Assembly (NCBI RefSeq): GCF_008275125.1
Contig: NZ_CP043473.1
Span: forward strand, 248,001-312,000
DNA from: Chromobacterium paludis
GTDB lineage: Bacteria > Pseudomonadota > Gammaproteobacteria > Burkholderiales > Chromobacteriaceae
Direction of reading: 5' to 3'
DNA: 64,000 bases
Shown: piece after piece, positions 35,989-47,760 of the stretch
Position numbering within the stretch: the stretch's first letter is position 1
Layout of the letters: each line of letters starts with the position of its first letter
Notes under the pieces: model-generated
Databases searched by the model: none
Told to the model about the DNA's origin: nothing
The model's input: the letters and a program-made list of their open reading frames with translations, nothing else
Made by a program: the position numbers and the translations under genes

Positions 35989-36019
35989 TTGACCCTGTAG
36001 TCACTTCAGGGTGTGCAAT
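35989..36019 (+). promoter_or_regulatory. MerR-type promoter/operator for the metal ATPase
   Basis: TTGACC (-35, 35989-35994) and TGCAAT (-10, 36014-36019) are separated by 19 bp, the stretched spacing expected of MerR-activated promoters. Between them lies a dyad: ACCCTGTAGT (35992-36001) against ACTTCAGGGT (36003-36012), 9 of 10 positions matching. It is 27 bases before the ATPase ATG. Confidence 0.85.
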
Positions 36020-36046
36020 GCGCTCAGACTATCAAGGGAGGCGCAT

Positions 36047-38488
36047 ATGTCAAGCTTCACGCGTTATCGCAGGGCGGCCGTGCCGCACAAAGGCCAACGC
36101 CAGGCCCTGGGCGGCGATTGTTGCTCGGCCAAGGCCGAGGTTGGTTTGGCGCTGGCTGGCGAGTCGCGCAGCGAACATGGCCATGGCCACGGCCATCCAT
36201 CCGCTCGCGGCAGCGGCTGCTCGCATGGCCACGATCATCAACACGGGCATGAGCACCCGCACGGCCGAGGCGGCTCCCAGGAGCGGGACCGCGAGAGCGG
36301 CCATCGGCATGAACACGGCGCAGGCTGTTCCCACGATCACGGCGATGCCGCGCCAGTCCGCGCGCAACTGGGGCGGGGGCCTGGGACGAAGCAAGCGCGC
36401 CTGCAGATCCAGGCCATGGATTGCCCGACCGAGGCCCGCCTGATCGAGAAAGCCCTGGTCGGCATGGACGGCGTGGTGGCGTTGGAATTCAACTTCATCG
36501 AGCGCGTGCTGCTGCTGCAGCATGATCTGCCGCATCTGGACGGCGTCAAGCTGGCCATCGCCAAGCTGGGCATGCAGGCGGTGGAGCTGGACGCCGCCGC
36601 GCCCGCGCAGGCGCCGCAAGGGCCTGGCCGCCGCGCCAATTTATTGTTGCTGGCCTCAGGCCTGAGCGCCGCGGCAGCGGAAGCGGCGGCCTGGCGCCTG
36701 GGCGACGGCCAGTACGCCGTGGCGGCGCTGGCACTGGCCTCCATCTTGCTGGGTGGCATTCCTACTTTGAAAAAGGGCTGGATCGCCTTGTCCAGCCGCA
36801 CCTTGAACATCCACTTCCTGATGTCGGTGGCGGTGATCGGCGCCATGCTGATCGGCCAATGGCCGGAGGCGGCCATGGTGCTGTTCCTGTTCGCCATCGC
36901 CGAACGGCTGGAGGCGATGTCGCTGGCGCGGGCCGGAGAGGCGGTGCGCGCGCTGATGGCGCTGGCGCCGGAAACCGCCTGGGTGGCCGATGGCGAGGGC
37001 TGGCGCGAGACGCCGGCCGCCGAGGTGGCGATGGGCAGCCGCGTGCGGGTGCGGCCGGGCGAGCGCGTGCCGCTGGATGGCCGCATCGTGTCTGGCCACA
37101 GCAGCTTCAATGAGGCGCCGATCACCGGCGAAAGCCTGCCCGTGGACAAGGGGCCTCAGGACGCGGTGTTCGCCGGCAGCATCAACGGCGGCGGCGTGAT
37201 CGAAATCGCCAGCACTGCGGCGGCCTCCGGCTCGGTGCTGGCGCGCATCATTTCTACGGTGCGCGACGCGCAGGCAGCCAAGGCGCCGACCCAGCGCTTC
37301 ATCGACCGCTTCGCCGCTGTCTACACCCCGGTGGTGCTGGCGCTGGCCGCGCTGTTCGCCGTCATCGCGCCTGCGTCCGGCCTGATGCCCTGGCACCAGG
37401 CCATCTACAGCGCGCTGGTGATGCTGGTGATCGCCTGCCCCTGCGCGCTGGTGATCGCCACGCCGGTGACCGTGGTCAGCGCCCTGGCGTCCGCCACGCG
37501 CCACGGCTTGCTGGTCAAGGGCGGCGCGCCGCTGGAGATGGCCGCCCGCATCGACACCGTTTGCTTCGACAAAACCGGCACGCTGACGCAGGGCTTGCCC
37601 CGCGTCACCCGCGTGCTGCCGCTGGCCGGCGATAGCGAAGATAGCGTGCTGGCCTGGGCAGCGGCGCTGGATAGCCATTCCACCCATCCGCTGGCCAAGG
37701 CGGTGCTGGACGAGGCGGCCAAGCGTGGCGTCGCCGTGCCGGCGTCTGAGCAGGTGACCGAGCTGGCGGGGCGCGGCGTGCGCGGCTGGGTAGACGGCCG
37801 CGAGCTGCTGCTGGGCAGCCGCCGGCTGGCGGCGGAGCGGGGCGCTTTGTCGCCGCGGCTGGAGCGGACGCTGCAAGATTTGGACGCGGCCGGCGAGGGC
37901 GTTCTGGTGCTGCTTGAGCAGGGACGGGCGCTGGCGGCGCTGGCGGTGGCCGATCAGGCGCGGCCGGAGGCGGCGGCGACCGTCGCGCGCTTGACCCATT
38001 TGGGCGTGCGGACGGTGATGCTCAGCGGCGACAGCCCGCAAGTGGCCGCGGCCGTCGCCAGGCAGACCGGCGTGGGGGCCGCGCACGGCGGCTTGCTGCC
38101 GCAGGACAAGCTAAGCCACATCGAGCAGCTGCAGCAACGCGGCAAGGTGGCGATGGTGGGCGACGGCGTCAACGACGCGCCGGCCTTGGCCCGCGCCGAC
38201 TTGGGCATCGCGATGGGCGCGGCCGGCTCCGACAGCGCGCTGGAAACGGCAGGCGTGGCGCTGATGGACGACAAGCTGTCGCGTCTGGCGGACTTGATTG
38301 CCCATGCCCGCCGCACCGCGCGCGTGCTGAAGACCAATATCGCCATCGCGCTGGCCATCAAGCTGGTGTTTTTCGTCTTGGCTTTGCTGGGCGCGGCCAG
38401 CCTGTGGATGGCGGTATTCGCCGACGTGGGCAGCAGCCTGATCGTGATCGCCAACGGCCTGAGGCTGGCGCGCGCGTTGCGGGCCTGA
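36047..38488 (+). CDS. cadA: Zn/Cd/Pb-exporting P1B-type ATPase
   Basis: An 813-residue inner-membrane metal exporter. The N terminus (about residues 40-100) is a long His-rich segment ('EHGHGHGHPSARGSGCSHGH' and further repeats), then a heavy-metal-associated domain with 'MDCPTE' at 124-129, typical of Zn/Cd/Pb rather than Cu pumps. Membrane helices carry the ion site CPC (464-466). The phosphorylation motif DKTGT starts near 508, 'HPLAKAV' and 'GDGVNDAPALARAD' follow. The ATG at 36047 has GGGAGG upstream; starting at 36011 would place the start inside the promoter. Divergent from the CadR-like gene that should control it. Confidence 0.94.
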   Translation: MSSFTRYRRAAVPHKGQRQALGGDCCSAKAEVGLALAGESRSEHGHGHGHPSARGSGCSHGHDHQHGHEHPHGRGGSQERDRESGHRHEHGAGCSHDHGDAAPVRAQLGRGPGTKQARLQIQAMDCPTEARLIEKALVGMDGVVALEFNFIERVLLLQHDLPHLDGVKLAIAKLGMQAVELDAAAPAQAPQGPGRRANLLLLASGLSAAAAEAAAWRLGDGQYAVAALALASILLGGIPTLKKGWIALSSRTLNIHFLMSVAVIGAMLIGQWPEAAMVLFLFAIAERLEAMSLARAGEAVRALMALAPETAWVADGEGWRETPAAEVAMGSRVRVRPGERVPLDGRIVSGHSSFNEAPITGESLPVDKGPQDAVFAGSINGGGVIEIASTAAASGSVLARIISTVRDAQAAKAPTQRFIDRFAAVYTPVVLALAALFAVIAPASGLMPWHQAIYSALVMLVIACPCALVIATPVTVVSALASATRHGLLVKGGAPLEMAARIDTVCFDKTGTLTQGLPRVTRVLPLAGDSEDSVLAWAAALDSHSTHPLAKAVLDEAAKRGVAVPASEQVTELAGRGVRGWVDGRELLLGSRRLAAERGALSPRLERTLQDLDAAGEGVLVLLEQGRALAALAVADQARPEAAATVARLTHLGVRTVMLSGDSPQVAAAVARQTGVGAAHGGLLPQDKLSHIEQLQQRGKVAMVGDGVNDAPALARADLGIAMGAAGSDSALETAGVALMDDKLSRLADLIAHARRTARVLKTNIAIALAIKLVFFVLALLGAASLWMAVFADVGSSLIVIANGLRLARALRA

Positions 38489-40541: not shown

Positions 40542-41351
40542 TCAGGCGGCGACGGCTTCCGTCTGAAAGCGAGTCAGGCAAACCCGCTGGCGCTGGCACA
40601 GTTCGCCAAACGCCGCGCTGGCCAGGTATTCGAATTCGCGGCCGCGGCAGGCAGCGATGGGATCGTCCGGGTCCTGGCTGGCCAGTCCCGGGTGGCACAT
40701 GATCAGCGCCTGATCCGGCATGCGGGCGAGCCAGGCTTGCATCAGGCCGGGGAAGTCGGCCTGAGGCGTCAGCGAGTACATGCCGGCGAACCACGGCGTG
40801 GTGGCGAAGCCGCGCTCCTGCGCCTGCTCGTCGAAGTGGGTGCACACGCTGCGCAGGATCAAGGACTTGAGCCGGTTGTCGCCGGGATGGCCCAGCTTGT
40901 CCGGCGCGCGCAGATAGGGCAGCTCCTCTTCATCCCAGCGGCGCAGGATGGCGTCGAACAGCGCGTCGCGGATGACGGGCAGCGCATGCACATGCTGATG
41001 GCCGTCGATGAAGTCCGGCAGCCGGCCGAAGTGCTCGGCGAAGCGGTCGATCTGCGCCAAGGCTTCGTCTCGCAGCGCGGGCAGCGACAACTGCCGCAGC
41101 TGGCTTTTCATCAGCCAGTGCGACAGCGGCTTGGCCGGCTGGCCGAAGGCGTGGGTGAGGTTGAAATGCAGGCCGACATCGACCCGCTCCGCCCGCGCCC
41201 GAATCTCGCCGGCCAGCTCCGGCCAGTGCGGAGACTGGCTGAGCACGCTGGTGGCGGACAGGCGGCCGGCATCGATCAATTGCAGGATGCCGGCGCTGAT
41301 GCTGCCGGACTGGGCAAAGTCGTCGGCGCAGAGAGTCAATTGTTTCGTCAT
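40542..41351 (-). CDS. YdjC/ChbG/HpnK-family carbohydrate deacetylase (NaxD-like)
   Basis: A 269-residue protein of the YdjC-like superfamily. Metal-site residues are visible in 'TLCADDFAQSGSISAGIL' (paired Asp), 'VDVGLHFNLTHAFG' (His) and 'DFIDGHQHVHALPVIRDAL' (HxxH-type His). Known members deacetylate N-acetylated sugars: chitobiose (ChbG), a hopanoid sugar (HpnK), or undecaprenyl-phosphate-N-acetylgalactosamine (NaxD in Francisella). It is the last gene of a minus-strand operon with a GT2 transferase, GtrA and an ArnT-like transferase, so a lipid-linked amino sugar is the most likely substrate. Confidence 0.85.
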   Translation of the reverse strand: MTKQLTLCADDFAQSGSISAGILQLIDAGRLSATSVLSQSPHWPELAGEIRARAERVDVGLHFNLTHAFGQPAKPLSHWLMKSQLRQLSLPALRDEALAQIDRFAEHFGRLPDFIDGHQHVHALPVIRDALFDAILRRWDEEELPYLRAPDKLGHPGDNRLKSLILRSVCTHFDEQAQERGFATTPWFAGMYSLTPQADFPGLMQAWLARMPDQALIMCHPGLASQDPDDPIAACRGREFEYLASAAFGELCQRQRVCLTRFQTEAVAA

Positions 41352-41406
41352 GGACGGTATGACTGGATGCGGTGAGGAAAGTTTGTAAAGGGTGCGCCGG
41401 CAGACG

Positions 41407-41796
41407 TTAATTTGTTTGCGGCGCGGAGGCGAAAGCCCACAGCTTGCCCAGCAGGAAAGTCAGCGCGGCCACGGCGAACAGCACGATGGCCAGCGAGACG
41501 CGGTAGTCCAGCGCGGTGAAGCGCAGCAGCAGGAAGTACATGGCCTCGTTGACGCAAAAGCTCAGGCAGGACACGCCGAAGAAGCGCGGCAGCGCCTGGC
41601 GGTGCGGCACGTGGCGCGCCTCGAAGGTGAAATGGCGGTGCCCCCAGTAGCTGAGCTGGAAGGCGCCGAGAAAGCCCAGCACATTGGCGGCGAGCGGCGG
41701 CGCGCCCAGCGGCACCAGCACCAGGGTGACCAGCGAAAAATGCAGAAGCATGGCCGATACGCCCACCACGCCGAACCATAACAGTTGCCGCTTCAT
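41407..41796 (-). CDS. GtrA-family membrane protein (probable lipid-linked sugar flippase)
   Basis: A 129-residue protein with four membrane helices and the GtrA pattern: 'LLWFGVVGVSAMLLHFSLVTL' at the N terminus and 'ANVLGFLGAFQLSYWGHRHFTFEA' in the centre. GtrA proteins are thought to move undecaprenyl-phosphate sugars across the inner membrane. The start overlaps the stop of the GT2 gene by 4 bases (ATGA type), showing close coupling. Confidence 0.9.
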   Translation of the reverse strand: MKRQLLWFGVVGVSAMLLHFSLVTLVLVPLGAPPLAANVLGFLGAFQLSYWGHRHFTFEARHVPHRQALPRFFGVSCLSFCVNEAMYFLLLRFTALDYRVSLAIVLFAVAALTFLLGKLWAFASAPQTN

Positions 41797-42800
41797 GCCG
41801 CGTCGTCTTCCCGCCGGCCGTGGATGCGGCTGATCAGATAAGTGGGGCGGCCCTTCACTTCATTGAAGATGCGGCCGACGTACTCGCCCAGTATGCCGAT
41901 GGACAACAGCTGCACGCCGCCGAGGAAGGTGACGGCCACGGCCAGGGTCGGCCAGCCGCTGACCGGGTTGCCGAACAGCAGCGTGTGCAGCACTTCCCAA
42001 GCCGCATAGCCTATGGACAGCAGCGAGATGACGCAGCCTATCAGGGTCCAGATGCGCAGCGGCATATTGGAAAACGCGGTCAGGCCGGTCAGGCCCAGGC
42101 CCAGCAGATTGCGGAAGTTGAAACTGCTCTTGCCGGCGCGGCGCTCCTGCGTCTCGGTCTCCATCGGCAGCTGGGTGTAGCCCACCCAGTTGTACAGGCC
42201 CTTCATGAAACGGTTGCGCTCCGGCATGCTGCGCAGCGCGTCCAGGATGCAACGGTCCAGCACGCGGAAGTCCTGGGTGTTTTCCGGTATCTTCAGCGGC
42301 GCGCCGCTGTTGATCAGCGCGTAGAAGACGCGGGTGAACAACTTTTTGGCCAGCGTTTCGCCGTCGCGGTTGGCGCGCACGCTGTAAACCATGTCATAGC
42401 CTTCGCGCCATTTTTCCAGGAACACCGGCACCATTTCCGGCGGATGCTGGAAGTCGCCGTCTATCAGCACCGCCACATCGCCGCGGATGTGGTCGATGCC
42501 GGCCGTCAGCGCGATTTCCTTGCCGAAGTTGCGCGACAACTGGATCAGCGTCACCGGCAGACGGCGGCTGGCTTCTATCACCTTGGGCACGGTGTCGTCG
42601 CGGCTGCCGTCATCCACCACCACCAGCTCATGGCGCAGGCCCTGTTCGCTCAGCAGGCGGTGCAGCGTTTCCAGCATGGGCACGATGTTGTCCGACTCGT
42701 TGTAGGCCGGCACGACGCAGCTGACCAAGGGGTCGTCCGGCCGCTCTGCCGCGCGCAGCGCCAGCAGATAGGGTGGGATGAAGTTGCGGGTATCGCTCAT
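41793..42800 (-). CDS. GT2 glycosyltransferase making a polyprenyl-phosphate sugar (GtrB/ArnC/FlmF-like)
   Basis: A 335-residue enzyme with a cytoplasmic GT-A domain ('VSCVVPAYNESDNIVPMLE', 'LVVVDDGSRDDT', 'DVAVLIDGDFQHPPEMV' with the DxD-like metal site) and two C-terminal membrane helices ('WTLIGCVISLLSIGYAAWEV', 'LAVAVTFLGGVQLLSIGIL'). It should transfer a sugar from a nucleotide donor to undecaprenyl phosphate. The ATG at 42800 has AGGA upstream; the longer reading begins with TTG in the previous gene's stop. Second gene of the operon, 14 bases after the ArnT-like gene. Confidence 0.92.
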   Translation of the reverse strand: MSDTRNFIPPYLLALRAAERPDDPLVSCVVPAYNESDNIVPMLETLHRLLSEQGLRHELVVVDDGSRDDTVPKVIEASRRLPVTLIQLSRNFGKEIALTAGIDHIRGDVAVLIDGDFQHPPEMVPVFLEKWREGYDMVYSVRANRDGETLAKKLFTRVFYALINSGAPLKIPENTQDFRVLDRCILDALRSMPERNRFMKGLYNWVGYTQLPMETETQERRAGKSSFNFRNLLGLGLTGLTAFSNMPLRIWTLIGCVISLLSIGYAAWEVLHTLLFGNPVSGWPTLAVAVTFLGGVQLLSIGILGEYVGRIFNEVKGRPTYLISRIHGRREDDAA

Positions 42801-42814
42801 GGCAAGGTCCTGGA

Positions 42815-44284
42815 TCAACGCGCGGCGAGGGGCCGCAGCAGCAGCATGCGGTCTTTCATCACGGGAAATTCCGCTGTCTTGGCATAGCCGGCGGCGATGG
42901 CCGGCGGCAGGCTGGCGTAGTCTCGCTGTTCGGTGACGATCCAGCTGCCCGGATGCGCGGCCAGCAGGCTGGCCAGCACCTGGGGCTTGGCGGTGGTGCG
43001 CACCTTGCCCTGGCTATAGAACTCTGCCGAGAACTCGCGGCGGCTGTCCCAATAGAACAGCATGGCATCCTGGGCCGGCTGCGCCTGGCGCCAGGCCTCG
43101 ATCACCGGTTTCTGGGTGCGGAAATATTTGGCGCCGTCGTAACGCTGCAGGCCGATGGCGGCCAGCACCAGGATGCCGGAGGCCAGCGCCAGCCAGGGCA
43201 GGGCGCGGCCGGAGCGGGCGGTTTGATCGCGCCGCCATAGTTCGGCCATCAGCAGGGCGGCGCCGGGCAGCATGGGCAGCGAGTACGGAAAGATGATGTT
43301 GCCGGACAGCGTGAAGAACAGCAGCGTCATGAAGGTCCATAGCGCGATATACAGCAGCCAGCCGTCGGTCTCGCCCTGGCGGACGATGGCGGGCAGCCTG
43401 CGGGCGCGGCAGGCGAGCCAGGCCAGCATGGCGAAGGACCACGGGAACAGCGCGCCGAAGGCGTAAGGCCAGATCATGCCGCGCGGCGTGGCGTGGGCAA
43501 AGCCGTACTTGTCGCCCTTCCAGCCGGAATCCAGGAAGCGGCTGACGTGCTCGCCCATGATGAAGTAGTTGAGGAAGCCCGGGGTGCGGATTTCGGCCCA
43601 AACATACCAGGGCAGGGCGATGGCGGCGGCCAGCATGGTGCCGGTGAGCCACGGCAGCTCGGTCCATAGCCGTTTCCACTCATTGCGGACCAGCACCCAG
43701 AAGAAGATGGGCATGCCCACCAGCACCACGTCCAGCGGCCCCTTCGCCAGCAGGCCCAGGCCCAGGCCGACGAAGAAGGCGTAGCGCCAGACGCGCTTGC
43801 CGCCGTTCATCGCATGCCAGAACGCCACCTGGCTCAGCGTGACACAGAACATCAAGGAAGGGTCCGTCATCACGGTGCCGGCCGCGCCGAAGAACAGCAG
43901 GCCGCCGGCCAGGAACAGGGCGGCGGCCATGGCGGCGTCCTGTCCCGCGCGGCGGCGCATCAGGTCGGCGGTCAGCCACAGCGCGCCCAGGGCCAGCAGC
44001 AGCGCCGGCAGGCGGGCGGCCAGCTCATGGATGCCGAACAGGCCCATGCTGGCGGCGGACAACCAGGTGGACAGCGGCGGCTTGGCCCAGAACGGCACGC
44101 CGTAATCGTGCAGCGGCGTCACCCAGTTGCCGGTTTCCAGCATCTTGCGGGCGATTTCGGCGTAGCGCGCCTCGGTAGTGTCGGTAAGCGGAATGGTCCA
44201 GAGCGCCAGGACACGGATCAATAGCAGGGCCAGCAGCGCGTAGCCGGCAGCCTTGCGCCAGGTGGGGTTCGCAGCGGTTTTCAT
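42815..44284 (-). CDS. ArnT-like GT-C glycosyltransferase (lipid A sugar transferase candidate)
   Basis: A 489-residue integral membrane enzyme with about eleven helices. The first periplasmic loop carries 'PLTDTTEARYAEIARKMLET' and 'PFWAKPPLSTWLSAAS', the signature of ArnT/PMT-type transferases with the catalytic Asp/Glu. A soluble C-terminal part ('FYWDSRREFSAEFYSQGK') is present. Such enzymes move a sugar from undecaprenyl phosphate to an acceptor in the periplasm, for ArnT the lipid A phosphate. First gene of the four-gene operon 44284-40542. The sugar is unknown; see the finding on lipid A. Confidence 0.9.
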   Translation of the reverse strand: MKTAANPTWRKAAGYALLALLLIRVLALWTIPLTDTTEARYAEIARKMLETGNWVTPLHDYGVPFWAKPPLSTWLSAASMGLFGIHELAARLPALLLALGALWLTADLMRRRAGQDAAMAAALFLAGGLLFFGAAGTVMTDPSLMFCVTLSQVAFWHAMNGGKRVWRYAFFVGLGLGLLAKGPLDVVLVGMPIFFWVLVRNEWKRLWTELPWLTGTMLAAAIALPWYVWAEIRTPGFLNYFIMGEHVSRFLDSGWKGDKYGFAHATPRGMIWPYAFGALFPWSFAMLAWLACRARRLPAIVRQGETDGWLLYIALWTFMTLLFFTLSGNIIFPYSLPMLPGAALLMAELWRRDQTARSGRALPWLALASGILVLAAIGLQRYDGAKYFRTQKPVIEAWRQAQPAQDAMLFYWDSRREFSAEFYSQGKVRTTAKPQVLASLLAAHPGSWIVTEQRDYASLPPAIAAGYAKTAEFPVMKDRMLLLRPLAAR

Positions 44285-44360: not shown

Positions 44361-44387
44361 AAACGCCACCCCGGCGGGGTGGCGTTT
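44361..44387. terminator. Strong hairpin between convergently spaced units
   Basis: AAACGCCACCCC (44361-44372) and GGGGTGGCGTTT (44376-44387) form a perfect 12-bp stem with a 3-base loop. It lies 14 bases after the stop of the POT transporter gene (minus strand) and acts as its terminator. Confidence 0.85.
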
Positions 44388-46374: not shown

Positions 46375-47760
46375 ATGGCACGACGCATTCCCGAACCATT
46401 CCGCATCAAGATGGTGGAGCCCATCCGCCAGACCACGGCCGAAGACCGCCGCCAGGCGTTGGAGGAGGCCGGCTGGAACCCCTTCCTGCTCAAGGCGGAA
46501 GACGTTTATATAGATTTGCTGACCGATAGCGGCACCGGCGCGATGTCCGACCGCCAGTGGGCTGGCCTGATGATGGGCGACGAGGCCTATGCCGGCAGCC
46601 GCAATTTCCTGCACCTGGCCGACACCGTGCGCGAGCTGTTCGGCTACGCCCACACCATTCCCACCCACCAGGGCCGCGGCGCGGAGCAGATTCTGTTCCC
46701 GGAACTGGTCAAGCGCTGCCGTGGCGAGCGGCCGGTGTTCCTGTCCAACTATCACTTTGACACCACCAAGGCCCACGTGGAGCTGGCCGGCGCGCGCGCG
46801 GTGAATGTGCTGACGCCGCAGGCGCTGGACACCGGCACGGCATATGACTGGAAGGGCGATTTCGACCTGCCGCGGCTGCGCGACATCGTGGCGGCGGAGG
46901 GAGACAACGTCGCCGCCGTCATCATCACCATCACCTGCAACAGCGCCGGCGGCCAGCCGGTGTCCATGGGCAATATCCGCGCCGTCAGCGAATTGGCGCG
47001 CGCGCGCGGCATCCCGGTGGTGATAGACGCCGCGCGCTTCGCCGAAAACGCCTGGTTCATCCGCCAGCGCGATCCGGTTTATGCCGCCGCGTCCATCGCA
47101 TCCATTGTGCGCGAGATGTTCGATTGCGGCGACATGTTCACCATGTCGGCCAAGAAGGACGGCCTGGTCAATATCGGCGGCCTGTGCTGCTTCAAGGATG
47201 ACGAGGCATTGTTCCGTGCGGTGCAGGTGCGCTGCGTGCCGATGGAAGGCTTCGTCACTTACGGGGGCTTGGCCGGGCGCGATATGGAGGCGCTGGCGAT
47301 AGGCCTGAAGGAAGGGCTGGACGACGCCTTCCTCAGCTACCGCATCGGCCAGGTGGCTTACCTGGGCGAGCGGCTGCGCGAAGGCGGGGTGCCGATCCAG
47401 ACGCCGACCGGCGGCCACGCGGTGTTCGTCGACGCCAAGCGCTTGCTGCCGCATTTGCCGCCCGAACAGTTCCCGGCGCATGCGCTGGCCTGCGAGCTGT
47501 ACCTGGAGGGCGGGGTGCGGGCGGTGGAGATAGGTTCGCTGCTGCTGGGCCGCAATCCGCAAACGGGCCAGCAGGAGCCGTCGCCGTTCGAGCTGATGCG
47601 GCTGACCATCCCGCGCCGGGTCTATACCAACGACCACATGGACTACATCGCCGATTGCCTGATCGCGGTGAAGCGGCGCGCCAGCGAGGTGCGCGGGCTG
47701 ACCTTCGACTACGAGCCGCCCATCCTGCGCCACTTCATGGCGCGGCTGCGTCCGTTGTAA
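46375..47760 (+). CDS. tnaA: Tryptophanase
   Basis: A 461-residue PLP enzyme that splits L-tryptophan to indole, pyruvate and ammonia. The PLP Lys is Lys261 in '[13 protein letters not shown]'. Against its relative tyrosine phenol-lyase, the active-site context is of the tryptophanase type: '[10 protein letters not shown]' rather than the lyase 'DATRCVEN', and '[17 protein letters not shown]' rather than 'MERGIISAGR'. GAGGAG lies 8 bases before the ATG. The upstream tnaC leader supports the assignment independently. A hairpin terminator follows at 47768. Confidence 0.95.

What the first reader, a model, noticed from the sequence alone, without database searches (positions are those of the whole stretch)
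40542..44284. Four-gene operon that matches lipid A amino-sugar modification
Seen: an ArnT-like GT-C transferase, a GT2 that should make an undecaprenyl-phosphate sugar, a GtrA flippase-like protein and a YdjC-family deacetylase, all on the minus strand with overlaps or short spacers. Known: in Francisella, FlmF2 (GT2), NaxD (YdjC-type deacetylase) and FlmK (ArnT-like) add galactosamine to the lipid A phosphate. As I recall, lipid A of Chromobacterium violaceum carries amino sugars (glucosamine and 4-aminoarabinose) on its phosphates. Inference: this cassette adds a hexosamine to lipid A, with the GtrA protein as the flippase, and would raise resistance to cationic peptides. A GtrA in such a cassette is unusual and could fill the flippase gap.
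Basis: partly seen in the sequence, partly recalled or inferred. Interest (0 to 1): 0.72.

Follow-up and report, generated by a model that had tools for sequence, protein, structure and literature searches.

The report
Cassette adding amino sugar to endotoxin
Four neighbouring genes in a Chromobacterium-type bacterium most likely build an amino sugar on a lipid carrier and hang it on lipid A, the membrane anchor of endotoxin; it is the same kind of kit that Bordetella uses for this, but fitted with a different final transferase.

Summary

The genome has a separate arn operon, so aminoarabinose is accounted for. In one relative from another family the cassette lies divergently beside an arn operon. 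Chromobacterium lipid A is reported (recalled content) to carry glucosamine and 4-aminoarabinose on its phosphates. Best reading: hexosamine, probably glucosamine, added to lipid A phosphate.

Its claim that GtrA is unusual does not: GtrA sits in 22 of 27 sampled YdjC+GT2 loci and in 14 of 14 full-length named Bordetella loci, and the fourth lgm gene (by elimination GtrA) was reported non-essential. Acceptor, sugar identity and flippase role are untested.

The parts
42815..44284 (-). GT39 / ArnT-fold GT-C glycosyltransferase (final transferase), 489 aa
44162..44182 (-). DTTEARY motif of the GT39 (residues 35-41), where the Lgm-type relatives have PDEGRY and the own ArnT has ADEGRY
   Evidence: D-x-T/S-E-A/S-R-Y in 40 of 42 rows assigned to the window's GT39 branch (one ETTEARY, one without a hit at this spot); PDEGRY in 88 of 88 other rows; own ArnT
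41793..42818 (-). GT2 polyprenyl-phosphate glycosyltransferase (makes the lipid-linked sugar), 341 aa
   Evidence: Pfam Glycos_transf_2 100 bits; PDB best match GtrB-type sll0501, 312 bits; tree
42435..42461 (-). DGDFQHPPE motif of the GT2 (residues 120-128)
   Evidence: Q-H in 103 of 104 YdjC-linked GT2 rows (the other is truncated), Q-D in 11 and Q-E in 1 of 12 rows without YdjC, Q-N in two ArnC
41407..41796 (-). GtrA-family small membrane protein (putative flippase or GT2 helper), 129 aa; the only PF04138 match in this genome
   Evidence: Pfam PF04138 73 bits; one match in the own genome
40542..41351 (-). YdjC-family carbohydrate deacetylase, 269 aa; the only PF04794 match in this genome
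   Evidence: Pfam PF04794 172 bits; one match in the own genome; the ADDF, GLHFNLT and DGHQHVH stretches align with solved YdjC-family proteins; tree
44364..44376 (-). terminator-like hairpin plus T-rich tail between the upstream peptide permease and the cassette
   Evidence: a consensus match only (6 terminator-like sites in the region, 4.4 expected), though the stem read is longer than the 5 pairs listed

Best explanation
The cassette adds a hexosamine, probably glucosamine, to lipid A phosphate. Proposed steps: (1) the GT2 moves N-acetylhexosamine from its UDP form to undecaprenyl phosphate on the inner face; (2) the YdjC protein removes the acetyl group, leaving a free, positively charged amine; (3) the lipid-linked sugar crosses the membrane, with GtrA as the likely helper; (4) the ArnT-fold GT39 transfers the sugar to a lipid A phosphate on the outer face. 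It works beside, and separately from, an arn (aminoarabinose) operon. In origin it is a hybrid: an Lgm-type donor half (GT2 + YdjC) joined to a GT39 of another branch. Shown here: gene content, families, predicted fold, branch membership, conservation, the separate arn operon. Inferred: every enzymatic step, the sugar, the acceptor and GtrA's role.
Against: The window GT39 is only 31-35% identical to the Bordetella GT39s listed and one clade of all YdjC-linked GT39s is rejected; its nearest relatives outside the cassette group lack YdjC, and I know of no tested acceptor for them. PDEGRY is replaced by DTTEARY. The arn adjacency was seen in one genome only. No acceptor, sugar or phenotype was measured. 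lgmD, by elimination the GtrA gene, was reported not essential in B. pertussis (PMC4993483, passage), which weakens the flippase step.
Confidence: 0.72

Rival explanations
1. The cassette decorates another envelope glycan (O-antigen, core or an exopolysaccharide) with an amino sugar, as Gtr systems do with glucose; the Lgm-like GT2 and YdjC only set the sugar, and the GT39 sets a different acceptor.
For: The GT39 falls with GtrA-GT2-GT39 modules lacking YdjC, including plasmid ones. The gene set GT-C, GT2, GtrA resembles Gtr clusters (E. coli yfdG-yfdH-yfdI).
Against: Fold closest to ArnT; GT2 apart from E. coli GtrB; beside an arn operon in G208; Chromobacterium lipid A is said to carry glucosamine (recalled) and no other YdjC was found in the own genome.
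Confidence: 0.18
2. Same pathway, but the sugar is galactosamine (Francisella FlmF2/NaxD/FlmK style) or another hexosamine rather than glucosamine. (A variant of the best explanation, not exclusive of it.)
For: Sequence alone does not fix the hexosamine; NaxD is the deacetylase for Francisella galactosamine (title in a reference list and review passage; its YdjC kinship is recalled).
Against: GT2 and YdjC group with Bordetella-type cassettes, where the sugar is glucosamine; no Francisella sequence was compared.
Confidence: 0.15
3. GtrA is not the flippase: it anchors or assists the GT2, as the related membrane part of dolichol-phosphate-mannose synthases does, and the lipid-linked sugar crosses by another route. 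(Concerns one step; not exclusive of the best explanation.)
For: The Pfam family is the GtrA/DPMS transmembrane domain; lgmD was reported not essential in B. pertussis; 5 of 27 order-sample YdjC+GT2 loci and 5 of 57 named ones show no GtrA within the distance used.
Against: Co-occurs in 22 of 27 and 52 of 57 such loci and is the only GtrA found in this genome, so a second GtrA is not available here.
Confidence: 0.3
4. It is a second aminoarabinose (Arn) system.
For: ArnT-like fold and weak ArnT and ArnC model scores.
Against: Scores of 126 and 172 bits against 224 and 338 for the own arn operon's proteins; no ArnA, ArnB or ArnD among the cassette genes; an arn operon lies elsewhere.
Confidence: 0.02

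Closest known systems
Bordetella lgm locus (lgmA-D, glucosamine on lipid A phosphates)
   Same: Same four families; GT2 and YdjC in the same clades as Bordetella's.
   Different: Window GT39 is from another branch; GtrA is co-directional here and on the opposite strand between GT39 and YdjC in 14 of 14 full-length named Bordetella loci; gene order GT39-GT2-GtrA-YdjC against GT2-GT39-GtrA-YdjC.
Francisella FlmF2 / NaxD / FlmK (galactosamine on lipid A)
   Same: Recalled: GT2, YdjC-type deacetylase and ArnT-like transferase.
   Different: Recalled to have no GtrA; no sequences compared here.
Arn system (ArnC, ArnD, ArnT, ArnE/F)
   Same: Logic: charge the lipid, unmask an amine, flip, transfer; ArnT fold.
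   Different: Other sugar, deacetylase family and small membrane protein; a separate arn operon exists in this genome.
GtrA-GtrB-Gtr O-antigen glucosylation, and plasmid GT39-GT2-GtrA modules
   Same: GtrA and GT2 families; the plasmid modules share the window's GT39 branch.
   Different: No YdjC; GT2 motif Q-D or Q-E instead of Q-H.

Membership tests
Bordetella-type lgm cassette | GT2, GT39, GtrA and YdjC families together | tested here: met
Bordetella-type lgm cassette | GT2 in the same clade as Bordetella GT2 | tested here: met
   98/98 support for the clade that holds both, (it also holds one plasmid GT2 without YdjC)
Bordetella-type lgm cassette | YdjC in the same clade as Bordetella YdjC | tested here: met
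   SH-aLRT 100, quick tree without bootstrap
Bordetella-type lgm cassette | GT39 orthologous to LgmB | tested here: not met
   separate 100/100 branch; one clade of YdjC-linked GT39s rejected, p-AU 3.7e-89
Bordetella-type lgm cassette | glucosamine found on lipid A phosphates and lost on deletion | not testable with these tools
   needs mass spectrometry
Arn (aminoarabinose) system | ArnT and ArnC models over curated cut-off | tested here: not met
   126 of 567 and 172 of 529 bits. The cut-offs are strict: the own arn operon also falls below them (224 and 338 bits)
Arn (aminoarabinose) system | ArnA, ArnB and ArnD beside it | tested here: not met
   direct neighbours are a POT permease and an RluA-like synthase
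ArnT-fold GT-C transferase | GT-C fold closest to ArnT, with its functional residues | tested here: met
Gtr O-antigen glucosylation | GT2 clusters with GtrB | tested here: not met
   E. coli GtrB outside the YdjC-linked clade (long branch)
Gtr-like modules without YdjC | GT39 clusters with them | tested here: met
   100/100 branch
Francisella FlmF2/NaxD/FlmK | orthology of each protein | not tested
   no Francisella sequence fetched; two papers not held

The most novel reading that the evidence does not exclude
Amino-sugar decoration is a swap-in half: a GT2 (Q-H motif) and a YdjC deacetylase, mostly with GtrA, are combined with several separate GT39 branches. In Chromobacterium this turned a Gtr-type transferase into a lipid A amino-sugar transferase independently of ArnT and LgmB. 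The residue after DxDxQ in the GT2 (H with YdjC, D or E without, N in ArnC) would be a readable marker of the sugar carried.
Probability: 0.35. Interest if true: 0.62.

Novelty: new variant of a known kind. Interest (0 to 1): 0.45.

Why it matters
If right, it gives candidate genes for the glucosamine long reported on Chromobacterium lipid A (recalled), and explains with two separate operons how one cell can carry two different amino sugars there. It also offers a clean test of whether GtrA is a flippase: this genome shows one GtrA only, whereas the Bordetella counterpart was reported dispensable. That the donor half and the transferase have separate histories warns against naming the acceptor from the GT2 or the deacetylase alone. 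No paper naming this cassette in Chromobacterium showed in the listings of my searches; those listings were capped and I opened only a few of the papers. One paper credits colistin resistance of a C. violaceum isolate to arnC and arnT (PMC10385785, passages).

Tried and rejected
Rejected: a second Arn system (scores, separate arn operon); an O-antigen glucosylation cluster as a whole (GT2 and YdjC disagree); GtrA as a rare oddity. Tried without gain: a significance test for the GT2 motif. YdjC linkage and motif agree in both independent pairs, but two pairs cannot reach significance. First-round profile searches let in wrong-frame extensions and antisense ORFs; I redid them with domain envelopes, and the counts used come from that. 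Three GT2 rows at contig edges (L155, L167, L203, all Q-H) were set aside in the motif count, and one truncated row (L163) could not be read. The 14 Bordetella loci are the full-length ones of 17 with that name; of the three short metagenome contigs left out, L163 shows all four genes, L167 ends before YdjC, and L198 (labelled B. parapertussis, 39% GT39 identity to the query) shows no GtrA between GT39 and a cut YdjC. Loci are uneven: many are Achromobacter or genus-mates, so counts are not independent, and 'beside' means centres within 4.5 kb. Trees used chosen rows: 48 of 116 GT39 domains plus window and own ArnT, 39 GT39 rows plus window and two ArnT, 52 of 119 GT2 domains plus window and three references, 79 YdjC rows. 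The groups of the two AU tests follow gene context and the GT39 branch, but earlier trees had been seen. A fold missing from the VIA-align list proves nothing.

Full report
What is there. Four ORFs on the minus strand at 44284-40542 encode a GT39/PMT-type GT-C transferase, a GT2, a GtrA protein and a YdjC protein. GT39 and GT2, and GT2 and GtrA, overlap by 4 nt each (the GT2 start is uncertain: TTG, or ATG six codons on) and YdjC follows after 55 nt. The GT2's best NCBIfam model is streptococcal PgfS, below its cut-off (272 of 500 bits). Upstream lies a peptide permease gene (POT family), present at the same place in 17 of 18 genus-mates and separated by a terminator-like hairpin. Downstream, convergent, lies an RluA-like pseudouridine synthase gene. 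The genome is one contig of 4,279,774 bases. A genus-mate, G016, has a contig of 4,751,080 bases, which I recall as the size of C. violaceum ATCC 12472; hence Chromobacterium.

Conservation. YdjC is in 19 of 19 genomes of the genus and in 2 of 6 other genomes of the family in that sample. All four genes are adjacent in the same order in 18 of 18 genus-mates and in G019. Four genomes of another genus of the family (G024, G213, G274, G304) have all four too. At the search thresholds the own genome has one YdjC, one GtrA and two PMT proteins, the second being ArnT.

A separate arn operon. At G000:C1:3210000-3226000 (L223) lie ArnT, an SMR-like 133-aa ORF (judged by eye), ArnB, ArnC, a formyltransferase, a UDP-4-ketopentose synthase and ArnD. 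The formyltransferase and synthase exceed curated cut-offs (453 against 316 and 679 against 294 bits); ArnT, ArnB, ArnC and ArnD are the top models for their ORFs but below strict cut-offs (224 of 567, 327 of 631, 338 of 529, 264 of 382). So aminoarabinose is accounted for without the window cassette, and each system has its own small membrane protein.

Relatives with names. A scan with an Alcaligenaceae GT39 pair gave 80 loci. In 57 of them YdjC and GT2 lie together, 52 of these also with GtrA, in all 52 on the opposite strand. Of 17 loci named Bordetella, the 14 full-length ones all show GT2, GT39, GtrA (opposite strand) and YdjC; the three short contigs are told under Tried and rejected. 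In G525 the GT39 match at 1967982-1969535 lies inside 'ArnT 1967952..1969541' of the published B. holmesii ATCC 51541 lgm locus 1966909..1970398 (PMC5454989, passages). That span covers GT2, GT39, GtrA and the first part of YdjC of L250. The same paper reports glucosamine on both lipid A phosphates of two clinical isolates and a very small amount in the reference strain. In B. pertussis, lgmA, lgmB and lgmC are required and lgmD is not essential (PMC4993483, passages), and deleting lgmA-D removes the glucosamine peak (PMC11895810, passages). By elimination lgmD is GtrA; I did not see this stated. G404, whose contig length of 4,043,846 I recall as that of B. pertussis 18323, has the GT2, a GT39 in two pieces, and no GtrA or YdjC hit in 14 kb. 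PMC11401268 (passages) says strain 18-323 lacks the modification.

Two halves with different histories. GT2: the window protein lies in a 39-row clade with 98/98 support that holds 37 of the 40 YdjC-linked GT2s in the tree, including Bordetella, apart from E. coli GtrB and both ArnC. Exceptions: L023 (a plasmid locus without YdjC) falls inside; L234, L061 and L062 (with YdjC) fall outside; several branches are long. YdjC: the window protein lies in a 47-row clade (SH-aLRT 100) with 44 of 46 GT2-linked YdjC; two rows there are not linked to a GT2, one at a contig edge (L071) and one alone in its stretch (L102). ChbG, the other 29 unlinked YdjC and the linked L061 and L062 fall outside (quick tree). 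GT39: the window protein falls in a 100/100 branch with plasmid and other GT39s without YdjC, apart from the Bordetella and Achromobacter ones and from ArnT. Holding all YdjC-linked GT39s together is rejected (p-AU 3.7e-89), and holding the GT2s of the loci with the window's GT39 branch together is rejected more weakly (p-AU 0.013). Hence the hybrid reading.

Motifs. Among 119 GT2 rows, DxDxQH stands in 103 of 104 linked to YdjC (the other is truncated); Q-D in 11 and Q-E in 1 of 12 without YdjC; Q-H in 3 contig-edge rows set aside. The two ArnC have Q-N and E. coli GtrB Q-D. This follows descent closely and only two independent pairs exist, so it is a marker, not proof of specificity. The GT39 reads D-x-T/S-E-A/S-R-Y in 40 of 42 rows of its branch (one ETTEARY, one without a hit), against PDEGRY in 88 of 88 others; the own ArnT has ADEGRY.

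Wider distribution. In the order sample 47 of 300 genomes have YdjC. Of 56 loci fetched, 27 have a GT2 beside YdjC, 22 of these also GtrA, and 13 of the 27 a GT39 that my profile recognises. Of ten ORFs tested as possible partners elsewhere, five (L065, L066, L067, L069, L080) match PMT_2, one of them below the Pfam cut-off, and five do not. In the class sample 12 of 321 genomes, the own included, match the window GT39 at 1e-50. Of 12 loci fetched from the other 11, 10 have GT2, 8 GtrA and 1 YdjC (some contigs are short). In G208 the window-like cassette (GT39 60%, GT2 72% identical) lies divergently beside ArnT, ArnB, ArnC and a formyltransferase; no other cassette locus in that search had an arn gene in its few kb of flank.

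Verdict. Lipid A phosphate hexosamine addition, probably glucosamine, is the best reading (0.72). It rests on kinship of the donor half with lgm, the ArnT fold, the separate arn operon, the G208 neighbourhood and the recalled Chromobacterium lipid A structure. PMC7716238 (passages) says C. vaccinii lipid A is the same as that described for C. violaceum NCTC 9694 and cites Hase and Rietschel 1977, which I did not read. The weakest link is the acceptor, because the GT39 does not group with the Bordetella-type transferases. GtrA is usual in such cassettes, and its flippase role is open.

Noticed in passing
L022, L023, L024 (Pseudomonas and Paracoccus plasmids): GtrA-GT2-GT39 modules of the window's GT39 branch without YdjC, near heavy-metal resistance and two-component genes (L023, L024) or transposases (L022).
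   Followed up: partly
L065, L066, L067, L069, L080: YdjC with GT2 (and GtrA in four of the five) beside a more distant PMT_2 protein instead of the window-type GT39: the final transferase seems exchangeable.
   Followed up: partly
L234 and L236 (both G848): One genome with two GT39s of the window's branch, one in a cassette with YdjC and one without YdjC, GT2 or GtrA in reach.
   Followed up: no
L223:7289-7690: SMR-like 133-aa ORF inside the own arn operon between ArnT and ArnB, a likely counterpart of ArnE/F (judged by eye).
   Followed up: no
L248 (G404): Probable B. pertussis 18323: GT39 in two pieces and no GtrA or YdjC hit nearby, in line with the reported lack of glucosamine in 18-323.
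   Followed up: partly
window 36011-38488: Heavy-metal P-type ATPase-like ORF with a histidine-rich start (read by eye).
   Followed up: no
window 46375-47760: ORF that looks like a tryptophanase or tyrosine phenol-lyase (read by eye, not searched).
   Followed up: no
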